From Acanthamoeba sp. SK_2022b (lineage: Eukaryota > Discosea > Longamoebia > Acanthamoebidae), in assembly GCA_027943245.1 (NCBI GenBank), contig JANDJZ010000183.1, forward strand, positions 1 through 64,000: 64,000 nucleotides of DNA. Direction: 5' to 3'. A program made the translations under genes and the position numbers. Below, in pieces: positions 6,295 through 31,819 of the stretch. Numbering within the stretch: the first letter of the stretch is position 1; every line of letters begins with the position of its first letter. The notes below the pieces were generated by a model. The model saw only the letters and a list, made by a program, of their open reading frames with translations, made no database searches and was not told where the DNA came from.

Positions 6295-7697
6295 GACACC
6301 ACATTCATACACTAATGGGTGTAGTGGCTCCCTTACAGGCTGCTGTTCGAGCAGGGCGATCTCTCGACGATCAAGGCCTTTGTACAGCGACAGTGGGCCA
6401 AGCTCGCCGCGGGACGGGTCTCGCTCAAGGACTTCATCTTCGCCAAGGAGGTCAAGCTGGGCACCTACAGCGCCAAGGTCCCCGCCCCTCCGGCCGCGCT
6501 CGTGTGCCAGAAGGAGATGGCCAGCGATCCGCGCGCCGAGCCGCGCTACGGCGAGCGCGTGCCGTATGTGGTCGTGTGCGGCGGTCCGCAGGCCAGGCTC
6601 ATGGACCTCGTCGTCTCGCCCCAAACTCTCATCGTCAACCCGTACGCCCGCCATACGCTTCACAGTGCATCAACCGCACACGACATATGCACATGCTAAT
6701 ATCACACATTAACCACTGCAGGAGTCTGAAGTTGAACGCGCGCTACTACATCGACAAGCAGATCGTGCCGGCCCTGGCCCGGGTGTTTTCGCTCATCGGG
6801 GTCGATGTGAAGAATTGGTGCTCGTCACTTGCCCCCCCCCTAACCCTTCCCTCCTCCGGCGAGTTCACAGCGTTGCAACCAGCACATGGCCCGGGACATG
6901 TCCGGTGACATGTTCGTTGACTCGATGACTGATTGGTTGAATGGAATGTGCGGCATGGAATGCGTCAGGTATGCGGAGATGCCACGGTCACTTTTGGTCA
7001 GCAAGGCGCATCAGCTCGAGTCGTGGGTGCCGCCGCCGCCAGCCGGTCGGGCCCCGCCAGCGCATGCGTCGACATCGGCTGGGAGCGGCATCACCGCGGG
7101 CGGCATCATGCCCTACGAGCGCGCCAACCCCAACAGGTCCCCACCATCGCTTCACTTTTATATTCGGGCGATCGTTCGCTCACTCCATGGGCTCCTTCCA
7201 CCATGACCTACAGGGTGACAATCGACCAGTACTACTTGAGCAAGAAGTGCGCCCTGTGCGAGAACCTCACCAAGAAAGGTGCTGCGCCCGCTTGGTGGTC
7301 ACGCTACATTTGTCGACAACTAATCACTGCCATCGGGGCTGTGGCGTCGTGGCCCGCTCCTTCCTATGGCTGGCGCGATCGACAGCCCTGTGCAGCGCGT
7401 GCATGAAGAACAAGCAGGGGTCGTACTACCTCCTGATGACCCGCTTGCGAGTCCTCGAGAAGGAGACCACCCACTTGGAGGAGATCTGCATGAGCTGCTG
7501 CGGCGCTCGCAAGAAGGGCGAGGACGGCATCAAGTGTGCCTCCCTCGATTGCGAGGTACAGCGCTCACTCGCACACGCACTCAAATGTCATCCCCGCTCA
7601 ATCGCCCGACACACAACAGGTGTTCTTCGAGCGGACAAAGGTCAACCGCGCCATGCACAGCTATCGCCACTTGTGCCAAAGCGTTCTCGAGTGGTGA
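3..7697 (+). CDS. REV3: DNA polymerase zeta catalytic subunit REV3, 5' end outside window, many exons
   Basis: B-family translesion polymerase that extends from mismatched or damaged primer ends in the nucleus. The frame is already open at position 3, so the N-terminus lies upstream. The first exon (to 1598) is a low-complexity linker; from 1743 the sequence resembles the conserved REV3 core. The inactive exonuclease-like region is at about 3060-4100 (DPDILVGYE at about 3607). Polymerase motif A is DFQSLYPSIVIAYN at 4688, motif B is NVTYGYTSANFSGR at 5306, and motif C YGDTDS at 5538-5555 is split by an intron and continues LFV at about 5740. The C-terminus has a CysA zinc module (C-x2-C at 7248, C-x2-C at 7396) and a CysB iron-sulfur module (CMSC at 7486, later C-x4-C), ending SVLEW-stop. 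All catalytic aspartates are present, so the gene looks functional. Confidence 0.95.
1669..1727. repeat. (TG)n microsatellite in a REV3 intron
   Basis: The tract fills most of the intron 1599-1742, between a GTACAC donor and a CTTAG acceptor. Confidence 0.95.
2319..2392. repeat. (TG)n microsatellite in a REV3 intron
   Basis: It begins about 14 bp after the donor GTGCGT that follows the LEK codons. Confidence 0.95.
3458..3507. repeat. imperfect TGTGT/TGTTG repeat in a REV3 intron
   Basis: Mixed TGTGTGT and TGTTG units lie just before the exon that encodes DCRIDVFHDERA. Confidence 0.85.
4491..4558. repeat. (CA)n microsatellite in a REV3 intron
   Basis: Intron 4481-4603. This tract has CA on the coding strand, opposite to the other long dinucleotide tracts of this gene. 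Confidence 0.95.
5588..5689. repeat. (GTGTT)n pentamer microsatellite splitting REV3 motif C
   Basis: About twenty pentamer units occupy the intron that interrupts the catalytic YGDTD-S codons. Confidence 0.95.
6219..6293. repeat. (TG)n microsatellite in a REV3 intron
   Basis: Lies between the exon ending KILEKSLR and the exon starting LLFEQGDL. Confidence 0.95.
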
Positions 7698-9970: not shown

Positions 9971-9991
9971 GGATACAGCCATACTGCGCAG
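9971..9991 (+). pseudogene. orphan 5S rRNA fragment, nt 1-21
   Basis: Twenty of twenty-one bases match the first 21 nt of the intact 5S genes (CGG became CAG), and the match stops abruptly at GCGCAG. That is the point at which the LINE copies at 28.6-31.7 kb enter 5S genes. Confidence 0.8.
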
Positions 9992-11902: not shown

Positions 11903-13070
11903 TGTTGTAGTCGATGCCATGGCGCTAATGATGCAGGAGTTGTTGCCGAGCGTCACATGGTGGTCATCGAGTGGGATGTAGTTGGAGAAGAGGTCACACT
12001 TGGCCATCATGTGCAACATCGCCCCTGAATTGAGGTACCAGATGGAGGTACTGTTGTTCATGGCGGTATAGGCAGCACCATCATCATCAACAGTCTGCAG
12101 AATGGGCTTCTCATCTGATTCTGAAGAATGGTCAGATGCGCAGTTGGTGTTGTCTCCACACTTCTTCTTCTTGGGGCAGTTGTTGATGAGATGTCCCTTC
12201 TCACAACAGTACTGGCAGTAGGTAGAGCCAGTTGGATGAGCTGTGGGCTTAGGAGCTGAGCTCCCTTCAGCCCAATGGGGCTCAGATCAACGTTGCTGCT
12301 TGGGACGGCGCTTGTGATCATGTGCAGTGAGCGCCTTGTCAGCAGTGGGTAGAAGACCTTGCTCTTTGAGAGAGATTTTGTCTTCTCATTCTTGAAGCTT
12401 GGCCCTGGCCTGGTGGATGTTGATGGTTGGCCAATTGGAAATGATGGCCTTGGTGATGTCATACTCAGGAGGAAGTCCAGTGAGTGTGATCACAAGGACC
12501 ATCTTCTGGACAATGCATTGGATGATGCCCTGGATGATCTTGCAGTTGTCTTCATCCAGCTCAAGTTCGTCGTTGTCCTCTGTGTGCTGAGCATTGAGGA
12601 GGGAGAGGGCGTCATTGAGCTCACAGTTGATGTTGGGGAAGGCCACCTTGGTGCGCTTGTTGAGTTCACCAAGGTAGGCAGCCACTGACTGACCAGGCTT
12701 CTTCATGGTAGAGAAGAGCTTGGTCATGCCAGTGAGAAAGTGACTGATGCCACTGGTCTTGAGCTCCTTGGTGAGAGTGTTGAGGGCAGCCTTAGGGGTT
12801 GAGACGTGCTTGAAAAGAGGAAGGAGGCTGGGATGGACCAGCGTCTTGATGATGCCAAGCGCCTGCTTGCTCTGGAGGTCAAACTCCAGCTTGTGGGCCT
12901 CAATGGAGTGGTTCAGTGTCAGCGAGCTTGTCAGTGGGATGAACATTGACACTGGTGGCGTAGCCTCCAAGTCCCTTTGACTGAAGGAGACTGAGAACCT
13001 GGGCTTTCCAAATACAGAATTCTCCAGATGATTGGAGAAGAGGAATCTGTGACTTATTCATGACAAGCAT
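11903..13070 (-). pseudogene. copia gag, CCHC knuckle and protease remnant
   Basis: Gag starts at 13070 (MLVMNKSQIPLL, then CIWKAQVLSLLQSKGL), with a frame break near 12,971 into a copia-type gag helical region running to about 12,386. A second frame carries a CCHC knuckle (CQYCCEKGHLINNC, about 12,200) after a stop. The protease box is WYLNSGAMLHM near 12,030, where the family has D-S-G; the catalytic Asp is replaced by Asn. It ends where the internal deletion begins. Confidence 0.85.
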
Positions 13071-13186
13071 GATGGGATGTTCTGGGAGTGCTGAGGATGT
13101 TGCTGGGTAGTGTTATGTGGCAGGTTCAAACAATTAGTCAGTGAGAGAGTGAGAAGTGGTAGCGTTGTTCAGGCTGTATGGGCAGG

Positions 13187-13199
13187 TGGGCCCATAACC
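13187..13199 (-). promoter_or_regulatory. primer-binding site, half-tRNA initiator-Met type
   Basis: The plus strand reads TGGGCCCATAACC immediately inside the 5' LTR. This equals the anticodon stem-loop sequence of eukaryotic initiator tRNA-Met, which primes Drosophila copia as a half tRNA. The position next to the LTR supports this role. Confidence 0.75.
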
Positions 13200-13474
13200 T
13201 ATTGCAGAGCAAGAGTGTGGCTGTGTGGGAGACCTATGTGGTCCAAGATGGCTATGTGTGAAGGTGTACAGTTTATTGTGTAACACGCTAAAGAGTGAAC
13301 AAAGAAACAAAGAATGAATGTCTGTTCCTTAAAAGGAACAGACACAAGAGTGGATTGGAGGGAGGTCATTGACAATGTTGACTCTAGGAGTCTGGCTCCC
13401 AGAATGTCTGGAGGAGTCATGTTGTGCTGCCTGTCACGACCTTTGGCTCTCTGGACTCTGGACTTCGTCCAACA
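13200..13474 (-). repeat. 5' LTR of copia element
   Basis: Aligned without gaps to 10292-10566; about 95.6 percent identical by hand count. The outer bases of the inverted repeat seen in the other LTR have changed here (ACG to ATG, and CGTG to CACA). Confidence 0.93.
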
Positions 13475-13627
13475 TGTTGTTGGTGCTGTGAAGAGGTGTA
13501 GTGATGTGGACGACCAGTATTGACCTCCTCAAATGGGCCACCAGTTTGTGTTGTGTGGAGATGTTTGTGTGAGTGGGTAGAAAGAAGAAAATTGAGAAGC
13601 CAAAGCAAGGCGATGGGTAACACTGTT

Positions 13628-13666
13628 GGATACGGCCATAGTGGCAGCTTAACTTTGCTGTTTGGG
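13628..13666. pseudogene. chimeric 5S rRNA remnant, sense start joined to antisense middle
   Basis: 5S nt 1-13 in sense is followed by GTGG and then CAGCTTAACTTTGCTGTTTGG, which is the complement of about nt 37-58. Lies 84 bp upstream of the intact gene at 13712. Confidence 0.75.
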
Positions 13667-13711
13667 TGGAGATGGAAAGAGGCAAAACAACGGAGATGGA
13701 TTAATGCTGTT

Positions 13712-13831
13712 GGATACGGCCATACTGCGCAGAAAGCACCGCTTCCCATCCGAACAGCGAAGTTAAGCTGCGCCAGGCGGTGTTAGTACTGGGGTGGGCG
13801 ACCACCCGGGAATCCACCGTGCCCGTATCCT
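13712..13831 (+). rRNA. 5S ribosomal RNA gene
   Basis: Full-length 120 nt. The 5' GGATACGGC pairs with the 3' end, but the 3' strand reads GCCCGTATCC with one extra C compared with the 119 nt copy at 62640. A TCCTTTTG run follows as the RNA polymerase III stop. Dispersed, not in a tandem array. Confidence 0.93.
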
Positions 13832-13838
13832 CCTTTTG

Positions 13839-14613
13839 ATCTCGACGATGGCGAGCACTATCTGTGGGAGAGCTACGACGACGGTACCGTCGGTACCCTC
13901 ATCTGCGATGCAACTAGGGGAGCCTCCGCTCGATTGAGCGATCTGTTGTTGACCGACGGCGACATAGGGGAGATCAACGTCGCACTCTACGACGCGCACC
14001 ACTTTGGGCTGTTGGTGAGGGAAATCGAGTGCCTGTGCCTGCCGCGCCAGTACGTGTGAGAAGCGCTTTGAGTTTGACCTGGACTTGGACATCCTGCGGC
14101 CCATGGTGCCCTCCCCTCCTTCTCGGTATCCTCGCCGGTTGACCCAATCGTTTCACACAGGTCAGTTGGATCACTCGTCTGCGTGTCCATGGCACAGACG
14201 CGAATGGAGCCCCTACAAGGCCAAGAGATGCATATTCCACGCCATCAGGTGCGGCGAGCCTGTGCACAGCTGGTGCGTGACATGCGCATCTCTGCTCACC
14301 GCGTGGCGGGAGGCGTGGCCACCAGGTACCGTCTTTGCCCTGCAGGTTGCGGACTACTCGGCGGCCAATCTACCTCAAGGAGATCATCGACCAGTGGGAG
14401 GACCTCAAGGCCGCCTTCCAGAAGCCTTCTTCAAGCTGCGCGACGAGTTCTTTGGCAAGGCGCGCTACCACGAGCTCTACTCGCTGCATGGACGTCGAGG
14501 CTGAGGTGCACGTCCACCTCTTCAATCCTCGGGACAAGGCCTTCCTCGCCTCCGATATCACCAAGCTGGACCAGCTCGCCCGCAACACGCCTGGCGCGGC
14601 CGACGCGTCAGAC
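13839..14613 (+). pseudogene. unrecognised gene fragment between 5S 3'-end repeats
   Basis: CpG-rich, codon-like sequence unlike its surroundings. One frame at 13840-14050 reads LDLDDGEHYLW then TLICDATRGASARL; a GTACGT donor follows at 14050 with a possible acceptor at 14160. Later frames give YLKEIIDQWEDLKAAFQ and AEVHVHLFNPRDKAFL. No start or stop is convincing and the frames do not join cleanly, so this is probably a captured piece of a host gene. Function not recognised. Confidence 0.45.
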
Positions 14614-14616
14614 GCG

Positions 14617-14640
14617 CCACCGTGCCGTATCCTCCTTTTG
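14617..14640 (+). pseudogene. 5S rRNA 3'-end remnant with terminator
   Basis: CCACCGTGCCGTATCCT plus CCTTTTG repeats the end of the gene at 13712 (13814-13838), but lacks its extra C. Confidence 0.8.
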
Positions 14641-14924
14641 CATGTTCTTTTGCACCTAACAACACCATAACCAAGACGACTTATCTTTTGCTACTCTCTC
14701 TGTTGGAACTGATAGGAGTTGAGTTTATTGAGTGAAACTTTGTTTCTCTATGGCCTCCTATCACTACACACTCAAAGCCTTTGGGGCCAGCGCTTGTTAG
14801 TCTTAAGCAGACAACACGTAGCGGGTGAAGACCCACGCATCAAGCAAGCTCTCCTCCGTGTCCCATCGTTTCACCTTTTCCACGGGCTCGCTCGGCAGCT
14901 GCAATGGACACAAAGCATGTAAAC
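14641..14924. other. spacer, nothing recognised
   Basis: No coding exon seen. It probably includes the 3' untranslated region of the minus-strand gene ending at 14925. Confidence 0.5.
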
Positions 14925-15263
14925 TCAGCCGTCGACCATCGCGCTGGAGCAGATCGGAACGGATGGTGGACGAACCTCGAGCACACGCGTGACACAGCCC
15001 AGAGGCTTGGCCATCACGTCATGGAGGACCGAGTCGGGAAGGACCGTGGCTTGGCCGCCTTGAGCAGCCGCGAGGATGTGCGGGTTCTTGCGAATGGCGT
15101 CGATGACGAGCGAGTAGAGCGGGTGGGGGTCCTTGGCCCCCTTGGAGTCGACGGGGGCGTCGACACCAGCCGTCACCCTCCCACACTTGACCATGAGCTC
15201 GTAGATCGGCTGGTAGTGATCTTCCAGCATCCACCGCTTCAGCTCGAACCGACACGAACGGTC

Positions 15264-15342
<79 letters not shown>

Positions 15343-16301
15343 GTGTGAGTGAGTTTTGTGTTGTCACAATGTGCCAGCCAATGAACGGCGAGGATGACGC
15401 ACGAGATCTGGGCGTCGCTGATTACGGAGTCGAAGAGAAGGAACTGGTGAGCGCTCTGGAAGAACGGCTTGCCCTCCAGCTGCAGGTAGTCGGCTGCCGA
15501 CCAGGTGATGAAAGCGAACCACTCGAACTCCTCCGCAGCCTCCTTCCACTTGATGTCGTCACGTCTCGTGGTCGGGTCCACTTCGTCCTCGTCTTCGTCT
15601 TCATCCTCGTCTTCGTCCTCTTCCTCGTCCTTCTCCTCGTCCTTCTCCTCGTCCTTCTCCTCTTCCTTCACCTCTTCCTTCTCCTCTTCCTTCTGCTGCT
15701 CATCGCTGCCTTCGGTCTCCTGCTTCTGGTCCTCATCACCCTTATCACCATCATCCTCACCTTCATCTTTGTCTTCATTATCTTCTACAAACTCCTTCTC
15801 GATACCCTCCGTCATCCCAAGTACCATCATTTGCTTGCGCGCGTTGCAGGCTTGGATGTGCTTGACCACTTCATCCACCTGCGCGCCCCAAAGCAAGGCA
15901 TGTCCGCATGGTGAGTCAAGCACGTAGCGGCAACACAGTGGTGGGTGGAGGCCACCTTGGCTTGGTACGTCAAGCAGCCGGCAAGGTCGGGCGAGAGGAT
16001 GAGGCCGAGGCCAAACACCCCGAAGCCGCCCATGCCGTAGGTGCCCAAGTAAGTCGAGGCGATGAACAGCTGTCGGCCCACCACCCGGTTCAATGGACAC
16101 CCCAGCTCCCTGCGGCCATTGGTTAATAAAAAAATAAAATAAAATAAAATACAGAAATAGAGGAAAGTACCTGTAGCTTGGTGGGCGGTCCCGCACTTCA
16201 GAGGGGTTCCAGCTCCATTTGGAGGACTCCTCCGGGTAGAAGGCAGCCTCGCGAAACTCGAGGATCAGTTTGGTCGGCGTGTCCGGGTCGGTGTCCGTCA
16301 T
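14925..16301 (-). CDS. uncharacterised protein with long Glu/Asp/Lys tract
   Basis: Starts MTDTDPDTPTKLILEF at 16301. Intron 1 has a GTACTT donor near 16,170 and an acceptor just before ELGCPLNRVV near 16,107. The next exon encodes a Gly-rich hydrophobic stretch (YGMGGFGVFGLGLILS), and a short intron ends before VDEVVKHIQACNARKQ near 15,892. Then comes an acidic Glu/Lys/Asp tract (about 15,580-15,790) and DIKWKEAAEEFEWFAF. The last intron contains a (CA)n tract on the coding strand (15266-15347). The final exon ends VPICSSAMVDG-stop. No family was recognised. The hydrophobic stretch could be membrane-associated, but that is a guess. Confidence 0.65.
15266..15347. repeat. (TG)n microsatellite with a short (CG) island
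   Basis: Sits in the last intron of the acidic-protein gene. TGTGCGCGCGCGTGTG interrupts the run. Confidence 0.95.
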
Positions 16302-16888
16302 ACACAGCTTTCAAGCTCAGCGCTGTCTTCGCGTTTTCTGCTGGCATGTTTTTCCCGCACAATTTTGAGGCAGCTCGGTGAAGGCTCGATGCCGACTGAA
16401 GTGAAGCTTTGCGGTCTGTTGTTTTTCCAATGGGCGTGTGGCACAACCATGTTGGTGCGCTGGGTGGAGGCATACTTGCACAAGCCAGCCATGACTTAAA
16501 AGGGGTTGGGGTGGGTTCAGCAATGCCCAACTATGCTGTGCAAGCAGCCATATATACTGTGCAAGATGGTCATCTACATGACCACTTTGGTTTCCTTGGC
16601 TGGCTGTCATGCTTACCAGTCCAGAAGCTGAGGGCTACCAGCACCATTTCCCACTGCCCTCCCACACATCTTCTCTGACACTAGAATGCAGACTGCAAGT
16701 GCTGAGATCACACACCACTGCTCTGCCATTCCAAAGCTGCTCCTTTCCAAGATCAGCCTCCCCCTTGACACCAACACCATTGCCTGCCTGGCTGATGAGT
16801 GCATGCAGCCCACCCAACCCAATCAGGGCAAGAAAACTGCACTTTGGTCTGTGGAAAGTCTGTGGAGTGCTTGGTGAGGAACAAGAGG
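16302..16888. other. CpG-poor spacer with dispersed repeat
   Basis: No gene recognised. Bases 16800-16885 match, in inverted orientation, part of 9992-10180. Confidence 0.5.
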
Positions 16889-16916
16889 GGATATAGTGGC
16901 AGCTTAACTTTGCTGT
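16889..16916. pseudogene. chimeric 5S remnant
   Basis: GGATA followed by TAGTGGCAGCTTAACTTTGC, the same sense/antisense fusion as at 13628 and again 84 bp upstream of an intact 5S gene. Confidence 0.7.
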
Positions 16917-24367: not shown

Positions 24368-24487
24368 GGATACGGCCATACTGCGCAGAAAGCACCGCTT
24401 CCCATCCGAACAGCGAAGTTAAGCTGCGCCAGGCGGTGTTAGTACTGGGGTGGGCGACCACCCGGGAATCCACCGTGCCCGTATCCT
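24368..24487 (+). rRNA. 5S ribosomal RNA gene
   Basis: 120 nt copy with the extra C and a CTTTTTG stop. About 36 bp upstream (AGCGGGACATCGG to GATGTT) matches the upstream of the gene at 52661, so flanking DNA moved with the 5S unit. Confidence 0.93.
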
Positions 24488-28464: not shown

Positions 28465-28556
28465 AGGATACAGGCATGGTGGATTCCCAGGTGGTCACCC
28501 ACCCCAGTACGCCTGGCGCAGCTTAACTTTGCTGTTTGGATGGGAAGTGGTGCTTT
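28465..28556 (-). pseudogene. 5S rRNA gene truncated by LINE insertion (keeps nt 22-120)
   Basis: Antisense 5S starting exactly at AAAGCACC, with a 7 nt internal deletion (28510/28511) and several C-to-T type changes. Nucleotides 1-21 are replaced by the 3' end of the minus-strand LINE. Confidence 0.88.
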
Positions 28557-30195
28557 CAAGTTCGTGTATAGGTAATTAAAGTGGTAACCAAGGCCTGTGG
28601 TGATGTAGGTTGGTCGCTTTGTCTTCTTGATGGGGCTTGTGGATCAGTCACCATCCCTCCTGGGTGGGAGGGGAATGTTGTTGTTGTTGTGGGGTGGTGA
28701 CACATTTGGCAGGGCGCCTCATTAAAAACCCCTCTCAGCTTGAGAGGAAAAGTGCGCCTGTGGAGGGGAGGTGTTGGGTTGGGTCTGGGTGTTGGGCTGT
28801 CAGCTTGTTGCCTGGCTGGTGGCTGTTGGTCCTGGGTTGTGCATTGGTGTTCTGTTTTTGGTTTATTGGGTGTGTATCATCTGGTGTGGTCCTGGTCATG
28901 TCCATGGGTCTTGTGCTCCTATGAGTGCGCTAGCCCCCACCCCCCAGTTGCTGCTGGGTGGAGGGGCTGTCTTGTGCTGTGTGGAGCAGGTGAGGCCCAT
29001 GGCATTCAAATACAAGCACCTATTGATCCACATGTGGTGCTTGCAGTGAGCAGGGTTGCTTGGATAGTGTGGAAGGCCTTGAAGTGTAAGTTGGTGTGTC
29101 CTTGTGGTAATATGATTGATTTGTCTGGGCTGATTTGTAGTTTGTGGTAGTCACAGAAGGATTGGAAGAGTGCAAGCAAGTTTGCCAGGTGTACCCTGGA
29201 ACTGCTGAGGATTGTTAGGTCATCTGCAAATGCTGTGTTTCTGATTTTGTCTGTGATGTGGTATGTGCAGAGTGTGAGTTCAAGAGTTGTTCAACCACCA
29301 GGTTCACAAATAGATTCCACAGGAGGGGGACAGGGGGGCTGTGTCACCATATCTTGTGCATACCATAGTGTTGGCGTTTTTGTAGAATTTGCTGATGAGT
29401 TGCTGCAGTGTGGGATGCACCATAGTATCATAGGGTTTGGGTCATGGTTCTGTGTGGTAGGGAGTCATATGCCTTCTCAAGGTCCATGAAGAGCACAAAC
29501 AGTGGGCAGTTGAGCAGGAGGGCCTCCTCAATGAGGTTCCAGAAAGTTATTATGTGTAATGGTGTGGAGTGTCCTTTGCCAAAAGCTGCCTGTGCTTTTG
29601 ATAAGATCCCTCATTTTTCTATTGCTTTGTATTGTTTAGGTTGGCTCTGTCGTTTCTCTTATGGATTGTCCAGATCTTTGTGTTGTTTAGGTTGTCCAGG
29701 GAGTGGTCATTGAGTGCTGAGTTTAGGAAGGAGAGGAGGTCTGCCCTGTTGTGATCATCTAGGGCTTTCAGCATTGCATTGTTTATTTCATCTGGTCCTG
29801 GTGCTGAGTTTGTTTTGATGTGGGCGAGGGTGTGGTTGAGTTCCTGTGTTGTGATGGGTCTTGTGATCTGTTCATTGATGGTGAGGCGGGGCCTTCTGCT
29901 GGTGTAGCACGATGGGCTGTGGGGTATGGTTGCGCCAGAAGGTGTGGGTAAATTCCTTTATTTTGTTTGGGTCTGTGATGAGTTAGTCATTGTCATTTAG
30001 AACATTCAATGGGAGTGAGTTTGTTTGGGTTCAGGGCGGAACTTAGTCTTTTGAAGTGTTTGTGGTTGATGAGGTTTGTGTCTCTGCGTTGCTTGGCAAC
30101 ATTTATGTTTATTTTTGCTTTGTTTAGGTGGTGGAGGGCTTTGTGCTTGTAGTGTTTTTGCTTCAAGTAACCATTCCTTGTTGGTGTTGGCTCTG
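28557..30195 (-). mobile_element. 5'-truncated non-LTR retrotransposon in a 5S gene, minus copy
   Basis: On the minus strand it contains a linker and an RT in broken frames: KTNSAPGPDEINNAML, VLFMDLEKAYDSLPH, then NTAFADDLTILSSS with the FADD catalytic box. The RNase H region is deleted and the element continues into a 3' tail homologous to 31,130-31,720. The 3' terminus is ACACGAACTTG, directly against 5S nt 22, without a poly(A) tail. It is strongly CpG-depleted relative to the plus copy, hence probably older. Confidence 0.88.
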
Positions 30196-31363
30196 ATCTT
30201 TGAAAAATAGAGCAGCGGGTAGTGGTGTGGTCTTCCACTCCCACCCAAAACCAGTCATACTAACCCACAGAACCCCTAGGGAACAATCAAATAATAATGC
30301 CGAGCTACACAGTATAGAAATTGCCCTGAAACACATGCCACGCGGCACCCCAGAAATCAGGATCTTTACAGACAGCCAATACGCCATAAAAACGGTACAA
30401 AACTGCCTAAAAGACTCCCCAGACATACACCACCTCACCCCAAATAGAGAGACCATCCTCAACATACGCAACCTAGCTAGCAAACACAACAAAATCACCC
30501 TCCACCACATCTACAGCCACGTCACCAAGAAGCTCCACACCGATCCCAACAAATGGCAACCTAAGATTGAGGCACAAAAAACAAACCTCCCCCTACACTA
30601 CCCCACCGCCTGCAAACTTAACGACCTAGCTGATGAGGCGGCAAGAAAAGGCGCAGACCTCCCACCACCCCCCTTAGCCTACGCCCGAGAAAGGGTGATT
30701 GTCCAAGACAACTTCTCCTCCTCCCCAATCCCCAGACAGATCCTCCTACGCAAATGGAAGGACCAATGGGACAGACCCCCCCCAGGAACCCCCAAGCGAA
30801 AAGCCCTAGCCAGCCACCCTGACATGGCCCTATACGGTTTCTTACTTAGAGCCACCAAAAACCTCCTCCCCCTTCAAGCCAACCTTCACCAAACCTCCTC
30901 TAACCCAGTGCACGCAACCCCCACCTGCATCTGGTGTGAACACAACAACCAGGGACACAAACTGGAAGACCTGGACCACGTCCTAGCCTCCTGCCCAGCA
31001 CACGAGACTGCACGACGTGAAGCGCAGTCATCTCTAAGCACCATCGCGAAAAAACTAGACACTATCCCCCTTATCCCCACCGCCTCAGCCACAGACTGGC
31101 TGGGCATACAACAAACTCCAAAAGGACACTCCAACAGCCACTACAAGACCTTCCGCGCCATCCAGGCCACACTCCTCGCCACAAGCCACCGCATCTGGAT
31201 CGATCAGTGCCTCTACCTGAATGCCTTGGGCCTCACATGCTCTGCGCAGTGCAAGACAGCCCCTCCCACCCCAGCAACAGCTGGGGTCGGAAAGGCTAGT
31301 GCATCGACAGGTGCAGGGACCCATGACGCCGTCCAGGACCACCGCCGACCGAACCCAGCCTGA
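30196..31363 (+). pseudogene. LINE RNase H and C-terminal zinc finger
   Basis: A 387-codon open frame (from ATG 30200), truncated just before the first RNase H aspartate: it starts in AAGSGVVF. It keeps NNNAELHSIEIAL (Glu), IFTDSQYAI (Asp), HHIYSHV (His) and LNDLADEAARKG (final Asp). A zf-RVT-like finger follows: C-x2-C at CIWC, then H-x5-C (HVLASC). No RT is present on this copy, so it is not autonomous, though the frame is undamaged and so relatively young. Confidence 0.88.
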
Positions 31364-31720
31364 CCAACTGATGACGTGACACTGGATGACTGACCACGAC
31401 AAGCCAACACAGCCAACACACCAACCCCGACCTCCACCGAAACAGCGGACCCGACCGACCAACCCGACCACCCTCCCTGGGTGCACTCTTTTCCCCTCTC
31501 AAGCTGAGAGGGGTTTTTAACGAGGCGCCCCACCGACACAGACGCCGCACAAGCAAAGACAAAAACTTTCCCCTCCTTCAGGAGGGATGGTGACCAGCTC
31601 CCAGCCGAATCCAAGGACCAGAGTGAGAGACTGCCATCACCACAGTGGGGGCTACCGGGCTAACGCCAGAGGCCACACAGGCACACGGTTAACCACTTTA
31701 ACGACCATTACATGAACATG
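30196..31720 (+). mobile_element. 5'-truncated non-LTR retrotransposon in a 5S gene, plus copy
   Basis: Begins head-to-head against the minus copy and ends TACATGAACATG directly against 5S nt 22. Contains the RNase H and zinc-finger coding frame and a 3' untranslated region with two perfect hairpins: arms CCCCTCTC/GAGAGGGG at 31493-31513 and CCCTCCT/AGGAGGG at 31571-31586. Confidence 0.9.
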
Positions 31721-31819
31721 AAAGCACCGCTTCCCATCCGAACAGCGAAGTTAAGCTGCGCCAGGCGGTGTTAGTACTGGGGTGGGCGACCACCCGGGAA
31801 TCCACCGTGCCCGTATCCT
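31721..31819 (+). pseudogene. 5S rRNA gene truncated by LINE insertion (keeps nt 22-120)
   Basis: 99 nt otherwise identical to the intact 120 nt genes, including the extra C and CCTTTTG stop. The first 21 nt are replaced by LINE sequence. Confidence 0.92.

What the first reader, a model, noticed from the sequence alone, without database searches (positions are those of the whole stretch)
28465..31819. Non-LTR retrotransposon that targets one point inside 5S rRNA genes
Two LINE copies in opposite orientation both end, without poly(A), directly against 5S nt 22 (AAAGCACC...). The downstream 5S halves (nt 22-120) are present at both outer edges, and nt 1-21 are missing from both. Two independent 3' ends at the same base of the same gene indicate sequence-specific target-primed insertion. 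5S-specific LINEs are known in animals (Mutsu, Tx1 clade); an RNase H-bearing one in a protist would be a separate and possibly undescribed case.
Basis: partly seen in the sequence, partly recalled or inferred. Interest (0 to 1): 0.92.

Follow-up and report, generated by a model that had tools for sequence, protein, structure and literature searches.

The report
LINE retrotransposon specific for 5S genes
A copy-and-paste mobile element in this protist genome inserts itself at one fixed point inside the 5S ribosomal RNA genes, a habit known from some animals but seen here in a differently built element that looks like a separate lineage.

Summary
In the 45-Mb assembly holding the window, 9 of 9 full-length matches to the element's 3' end (window copy included) abut 5S nt 22 (AAAGCACC), without poly(A). 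A tenth copy has a deletion across the junction but still ends in 5S. The old window copy A (68-71% nt identity) uses the same base. All 9 readable 5' ends follow a 5S 5' part (to nt 34-36). The longest copies are about 6.06 kb. A 13-14 bp target duplication (nt 22-34/35) follows from the junctions, and an empty paralogous 5S gene supports it. ORF2 carries AP-type endonuclease, reverse transcriptase and RNase H; dN/dS is 0.16-0.27. This is a site-specific LINE using target-primed reverse transcription. Its RT forms its own small clade, whose deep position is unresolved. One copy carries a second, variant 5S nt 1-36 before the element, suggesting an RNA template that began at a donor gene's 5S start. 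'nt 1-21 missing' is peculiar to this locus. Mutsu in fish is the precedent. An earlier Repbase description could not be excluded.

The parts
28465..28556 (-). 5S rRNA gene remnant, nt 22-120, 3' of copy A; decayed
   Evidence: blastn 86% to the intact 5S; Rfam RF00001 41.6 bits
28557..30196 (-). Copy A: old, diverged, internally deleted LINE copy with its 3' end at 5S nt 22
   Evidence: 68-71% nt identity to full-length copy L069 over three blocks; RVT_1 piece E 1e-06, 29.0 bits, just under the 29.6 cut-off; 69-80% aa identity to the 11 other copies matched by another piece
28710..28760 (-). 3' UTR stem-loop of copy A
   Evidence: RNA fold, inner hairpin CCTCTCAAGCTGAGAGG
30197..31720 (+). 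Copy B: young LINE copy, lacking everything 5' of the RNase H region, 3' end at 5S nt 22
   Evidence: 95% identical to L069 4807-6331
30197..31363 (+). Open frame of copy B: RNase H plus C-terminal CCHC-like region (C-terminal part of ORF2)
   Evidence: PF00075 E 3.8e-11; zf-RVT E 0.1, below cut-off
31479..31530 (+). 3' UTR stem-loop of copy B with the motif GGGGTTTTTAACGAGGC
   Evidence: RNA fold; similar architecture with other stem letters in the related C932 element
31721..31819 (+). 5S rRNA gene, nt 22-120, 3' of copy B
   Evidence: 100% identity to the intact 5S
24368..24487 (+). Complete 5S gene used as the reference for target numbering
   Evidence: Rfam RF00001, 108.2 bits, model 1-120

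Best explanation
This is an autonomous, sequence-specific non-LTR retrotransposon (LINE) of about 6.06 kb whose only observed target is one point in the 5S rRNA gene. Shown: 3' ends at nt 22, 5' ends after a 5S 5' part to nt 34-36, hence a 13-14 bp target-site duplication, an empty-site paralogue, and AP-endonuclease, RT and RNase H domains. Inferred: the endonuclease nicks the antisense strand at 5'-GGTGCTTT^CTGCGC-3'. The exposed TTT-OH primes reverse transcription from the 3' end of the element RNA, perhaps recognised through its 3' UTR stem-loop. The sense strand is cut 13-14 bp downstream and filled in as the duplication. Less certain: the RNA template starts at the donor gene's 5S start and carries nt 1-35 as a 5' leader, which then aligns with the same sequence in the new target and favours 5'-complete insertions.
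For: 9 of 9 full-length 3' matches abut 5S nt 22, and a tenth, deleted copy is joined to 5S nt 54. Of 10 matches to the element's 5' end, 9 follow a 5S 5' part to nt 34-36 and the tenth begins at a contig edge. The 10 downstream flanks differ, the only similarities being C660/C924 at 78% over 102 bp and C647/C924 over 22 bp. Filled/empty pair on contig C660: the filled site and the intact 5S gene at C660:7459 share 84 bp before nt 1, nt 1-34, nt 22-120 and about 64 bp behind the gene. Domains: Exo_endo_phos 6e-10, RVT_1 3e-34, RNase_H 2e-13. dN/dS 0.16-0.27 in 3 of 3 pairs, on 612-830 codons. Donor 5S start: C913 has nt 1-35, A, then a variant nt 1-36, then the element; C647 and C385 carry 6-7 extra bases resembling nt 30-35.
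Against: No biochemistry and no transcript data. C80 and C924 share their 5' flank exactly, so not all 5' ends are independent. The empty-site paralogue shares only 84 bp upstream, of which 39 are themselves an inverted 5S piece, and differs beyond that. The extra leader bases at three 5' ends could be repair or template-jump products. A Pol III transcript of 6 kb is doubtful: the element has five runs of four or more T and no depletion of such runs. The resemblance of the element's 3' end to 5S nt 5-20 is weak.
Confidence: 0.93

Rival explanations
1. Copies spread mainly by duplication or gene conversion of 5S loci that already held one insertion, not by repeated targeted retrotransposition.
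For: C80 and C924 share a 100-bp 5' flank exactly, so at least one exchange or duplication has happened. Small similarities exist between three 3' flanks.
Against: 10 distinct 3' flanks, 8 distinct 5' flanks among 9, and variable 5' junction letters. The filled/empty pair shows at least one real insertion event with a target duplication.
Confidence: 0.04
2. It is a distant member of the Tx1 clade (the clade of Mutsu) that reached a protist and kept the 5S target.
For: Same target gene as Mutsu (PMC3706591, PMC11202950, passages read). Grouping with the L1 group is not rejected (AU p 0.166).
Against: The best tree puts it in a separate clade with C932, P0001 and P0002 (100/98), outside the L1 group (99/99). 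It has an RNase H domain, and the list of RNase H-bearing clades in PMC4640811 (passage) does not name Tx1. No Tx1 or Mutsu sequence was available to compare.
Confidence: 0.12
3. Targeting is done mainly by tethering to the Pol III machinery on 5S genes, with little sequence specificity of the endonuclease.
For: The target is a Pol III gene, and tethering is known for LTR elements such as yeast Ty1 and Ty3 (recalled).
Against: The junction is fixed to the base inside the transcribed sequence, not spread over a window upstream. One search finds no copy with an intact 3' end outside 5S.
Confidence: 0.06

Closest known systems
Mutsu
   Same: Non-LTR retrotransposon with two ORFs, about 5.5 kb, inserted in 5S rRNA genes (PMC11202950, passages; PMC3706591, passage).
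   Different: Here RNase H is present, the host is a protist and the RT is not placed in the L1 group. Mutsu's exact target base could not be read here.
Utopia, including NeSL-1_ACa of Acanthamoeba castellanii (U2 snRNA genes)
   Same: Target-specific LINE in a multicopy small RNA gene, reported from an amoeba (PMC4640811, introduction and passages incl. part of the abstract).
   Different: Utopia has a restriction-like endonuclease and targets U2; this one has an AP-type endonuclease and targets 5S.
R1 and R2 of animal 28S genes
   Same: Fixed insertion point in an rRNA gene with precise 3' ends; an rRNA leader on the RNA helping the 5' junction is a parallel to R2 (recalled).
   Different: Different target; different endonuclease (R2); different RT group from R1's I group, by proxy rows only.
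Jockey-like LINEs in 5S arrays of Tribolium freemani
   Same: LINE interrupting 5S-containing arrays (PMC11202950, passages).
   Different: No base-exact target is given in the passages read, and copies outside the 5S arrays exist there.
Dada-5S DNA transposons of fish
   Same: 5S gene as target (PMC8869645, passages).
   Different: DNA transposon, an unrelated mechanism.

Membership tests
Sequence-specific non-LTR retrotransposon (general kind) | RT of LINE type with AP or restriction-like endonuclease, no LTRs | tested here: met
   Exo_endo_phos 6e-10, RVT_1 3e-34; best solved relatives are R2 and LINE-1 ORF2 proteins
Sequence-specific non-LTR retrotransposon (general kind) | 3' ends of independent copies at one base of the target | tested here: met
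   9 of 9 full-length 3' matches at nt 22, copy A too
Sequence-specific non-LTR retrotransposon (general kind) | Target-site alteration typical of TPRT (duplication) | tested here: met
   nt 22-34/35 present on both sides in copies with both ends; filled/empty pair
Sequence-specific non-LTR retrotransposon (general kind) | Endonuclease nicks the target in vitro | not testable with these tools
   needs protein
Tx1 clade / Mutsu | 5S rRNA gene target | tested here: met
Tx1 clade / Mutsu | RT groups with L1/Tx1 | tested here: inconclusive
   own clade in the best tree; AU p 0.166 for joining the L1 group; no Tx1 reference on hand
Tx1 clade / Mutsu | No RNase H domain (inferred from Tx1 not being listed in PMC4640811, passage) | tested here: not met
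   RNase_H 2e-13
I group incl. R1 | AP endonuclease plus RT plus RNase H | tested here: met
I group incl. R1 | RT groups with the I group | tested here: inconclusive
   AU p 0.0003 against joining P0113, P0074, P0101, P0112, P0118, proxies chosen by domain content after seeing a first tree; joining the whole 15-row group that holds them is not rejected, p 0.14
Restriction-like-endonuclease LINEs (R2, NeSL/Utopia) | Restriction-like endonuclease | tested here: inconclusive
   AP endonuclease found; no dedicated search for a restriction-like endonuclease; RT sisterhood not rejected, AU p 0.384
Dualen/RandI | Both endonuclease types plus RNase H | not tested
   AP endonuclease and RNase H present; second endonuclease not specifically searched, no Dualen reference

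The most novel reading that the evidence does not exclude
An amoebozoan AP-endonuclease/RNase H LINE lineage became 5S-specific independently of the animal Tx1 elements and of R1. It also lives off the target's own start site: its RNA begins at 5S nt 1 under the gene's upstream promoter and carries a 5S leader that guides 5'-complete integration into the next 5S gene.
Probability: 0.4. Interest if true: 0.72.

Novelty: new variant of a known kind. Interest (0 to 1): 0.62.

Why it matters
[quoted passage not shown] A 5S-specific element with AP endonuclease and RNase H outside those groups would be one more origin of target specificity, on the same gene that Mutsu uses in fish. In this genome the 5S genes are spread over many contigs and many have their own flanks, so single insertions can be mapped, dated and matched to empty sites. 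The C913 copy makes a question testable: whether a site-specific LINE in a Pol III gene is expressed from its host gene's own start.

Tried and rejected
Rejected: (1) One inverted duplication making the window pair (A 68-71%, B 95% identical to L069). (2) The element's 3' tail as a rebuilt 5S 5' half: Rfam aligns it as a full 5S, but against shuffles p = 0.015 for B and 0.20 for A, and 6.8% and 46% of element windows score as well. (3) Pol III transcription shown by depleted T runs: not depleted. (4) More 5S-targeting families among lone 5S halves: of 23 listed 3' halves without a listed 5' half, 9 are B, 1 is A, and the other 13 keep 5S-like letters before nt 22; 16 of the 116 sites (and 16 of 116) were not listed and not looked at. 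(5) The related element at C932 (about 35-40% aa identity) as a second 5S-specific family: no 5S found in the fetched stretch, 1.5 kb beyond its coding match; its exact 3' end was not located. (6) Ribozyme or other known RNA in the full-length copy: nothing above its family cut-off besides 5S.

Led nowhere: protein searches with the RNase H/C-terminal region and with the endonuclease region found no homologue at E <= 0.001 among the candidates scored; relatives of P0001 in genome contigs and of ORF2 in viral contigs: none confirmed. Old relatives at C471 and C408 are too decayed to read a 3' end. The old relative at C427 could not be fetched.

Full report
WHAT THE WINDOW SHOWS. Copy A (minus strand, 28557-30196) and copy B (plus strand, 30197-31720) stand head to head. 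Each 3' end runs directly into 5S nt 22 (AAAGCACC) without poly(A). The five other 5S genes of the window are complete. B carries an open frame with RNase H (3.8e-11) and A a decayed RT piece (1e-06, just under the cut-off). A matches the full-length copy L069 at 68-71% and is internally deleted; B matches it at 95%. They are two insertions of different age, not one duplicated insertion. How both lost their 5' parts is not known; a deletion or recombination at 30196/30197 is inferred.

GENOME-WIDE TEST. The window is C351 of a 45-Mb, 1129-contig assembly. Its 5S sequence looks like that of Acanthamoeba; this is recalled and was not tested against a named record. The last 221 bases of B have 11 matches (a lower bound, as the tool says). 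Nine are full length, window copy included, and all nine abut AAAGCACC. One, on C924, lacks the last part and is joined to 5S nt 54. One is copy A. The downstream flanks of the ten B-type copies differ, apart from 78% over 102 bp (C660/C924) and 22 bp (C647/C924). A search with the 5' end of the element gives 10 matches; nine follow a 5S 5' part and one, C419, starts at a contig edge (junctions). Eight of the nine 5' flanks are distinct; C80 and C924 share theirs exactly over 100 bp. Two 5' ends without a partner (C385, C721) lie on contigs that stop inside the element and may belong to copies cut off on C351 or C419.

TARGET-SITE DUPLICATION AND EMPTY SITE. 5' junctions lie after nt 34 (C660); after nt 35, directly followed by element letters (C80, C924, C721, C539); after nt 35 plus extra bases (C647 GTTTCC, C385 GGCTTCC, C878 ATCC, the last also readable as nt 1-42 lacking one C); and after a second leader in C913. 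Since 3' junctions are at nt 22, nt 22-34/35 stands on both sides. On contig C660 an intact 5S gene (L077, nt 22 at 7459) shares with the filled site (about 11930-16385) 84 bp before nt 1 (3 mismatches; 39 of these bp are an inverted 5S piece, 45 are not 5S-like, and beyond them the loci differ), nt 1-34, and on the other side 162 of 162 bp from nt 22 to the end of the fetched stretch, about 64 of them behind the gene. This is the empty-site control.

THE ELEMENT. The copy on C647 spans L069:273-6331, 6059 bases; by their end coordinates C913 is similar and C80 about 6.0 kb, while C878, C539 and C660 are shorter. ORF1 has no Pfam match at E <= 0.1. In C913 the ORF2 frame opens before the ORF1 stop, in another frame, so a frameshift or reinitiation is likely (inferred). 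ORF2 has an AP-type endonuclease (6e-10), RT (3e-34) and RNase H (2e-13), then a CCHC-like motif read by eye (zf-RVT only E 0.1). dN/dS between three copies is 0.16-0.27 on 612-830 codons, so the protein was under selection while copies were made. Some copies have stops in their frames.

3' UTR STRUCTURE. A stem-loop with the motif GGGGTTTTTAACGAGGC lies about 210 bases from the 3' end in B; A has it with one change, about 170 bases from its end. The related C932 element has the exact motif and a similar architecture with other outer-stem and hairpin letters (four sequences folded one by one, no formal covariation count). The whole 242-base 3' end folds with z = -2.55. It is a candidate recognition signal for the RT (inferred).

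WHERE THE RNA STARTS. C913 has 5S nt 1-35, one A, then a second, slightly different 5S nt 1-36, then the element. The two leaders differ at nt 12 and nt 23, so the second probably came with the cDNA from a donor gene, starting exactly at 5S nt 1. C647 and C385 carry shorter pieces resembling nt 30-35. In 29 complete 5S genes among the fetched loci (some are paralogous duplicates) the upstream region has conserved stretches at -28 to -25 (GACA, 65-75% per base) and -6 to -1 (GCTGTT-like, G at -6 93%, T at -2 96%), so a start at nt 1 may not need the internal promoter alone. PMC3369914 (passages) says most eukaryotes have both external and internal 5S promoter elements and cites Peng and Bateman 2004 on the A. 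castellanii 5S promoter, which I did not see. This part of the model is inference with one strong and two weak cases.

RELATIONSHIPS. The RT search scored 7986 candidates and listed 120 of 732 hits. The best is P0001 (42%, filed under a bacterial MAG, probably eukaryotic contamination) and the next P0002 (34%). In a quick 64-row tree the element, C932, P0001 and P0002 already form a clade (SH-aLRT 96). In a 39-row tree, a part of those rows chosen after seeing the first, the clade has 100/98, apart from the L1 group of 6 rows (99/99), the R2/NeSL group of 11 (100/99) and a group of 15 rows, 14 of which have a listed AP-endonuclease domain (100/99). Joining it to the L1 group (p 0.166), to R2/NeSL (0.384) or to the 15 rows (0.14) is not rejected; joining it to five I-like rows is (0.0003). 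Labels other than human LINE-1 and R2Tg are inferred from domains and a few record names. The deep position is therefore open.

LITERATURE. A search for Acanthamoeba with non-LTR retrotransposon and 5S rRNA gave two papers, neither on this subject by title and listing. Broader searches gave no listed paper on a 5S LINE in a protist (listings only: 25 of 105, 25 of 632, 1 of 1, 10 of 10, 1 of 1, 8 of 8, 3 of 3). PMC4640811 (introduction and passages) reports a U2-specific LINE in A. castellanii and cites the unread Repbase report of 2009. Mutsu is known to me here from passages only. The library lacks most subscription journals and Repbase, so 'not in print' is not claimed.

VERDICT. As far as could be checked it is a new variant of site-specific LINEs: same target gene as Mutsu, different protein architecture and, on present evidence, a different lineage.

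Noticed in passing
window 9971-9991 (+): A stray 5S fragment of nt 1-21 (95%) that ends exactly at the insertion point, followed by unrelated sequence; perhaps the scar of an old insertion or break.
   Followed up: partly
window 13628-13669 and 16899-16916: Short direct and inverted 5S pieces just upstream of complete 5S genes, hinting at past 5S rearrangements.
   Followed up: no
L065 (C471:6992-10186) and L068 (C408:36664-39774): Decayed relatives of this LINE; the last protein match lies about 410-430 bp upstream of a complete 5S gene in both, in similar blocks. An older 5S association is possible but their 3' ends are unreadable.
   Followed up: partly
5S upstream flanks in the fetched loci: 29 complete 5S genes share upstream stretches near -28 (GACA) and -6 to -1 (GCTGTT-like), a likely external promoter.
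   Followed up: partly
L022 (C346) and L075 (C436): Two 5S copies keep only about nt 15-120, with the first bases replaced by other sequence.
   Followed up: no
C932 element (L057) and further RT matches: 22 of the 40 RT matches in this genome belong to other LINE families (27-50% identity, open frames up to 2573 aa); their targets were not examined, apart from a look downstream of C932.
   Followed up: no
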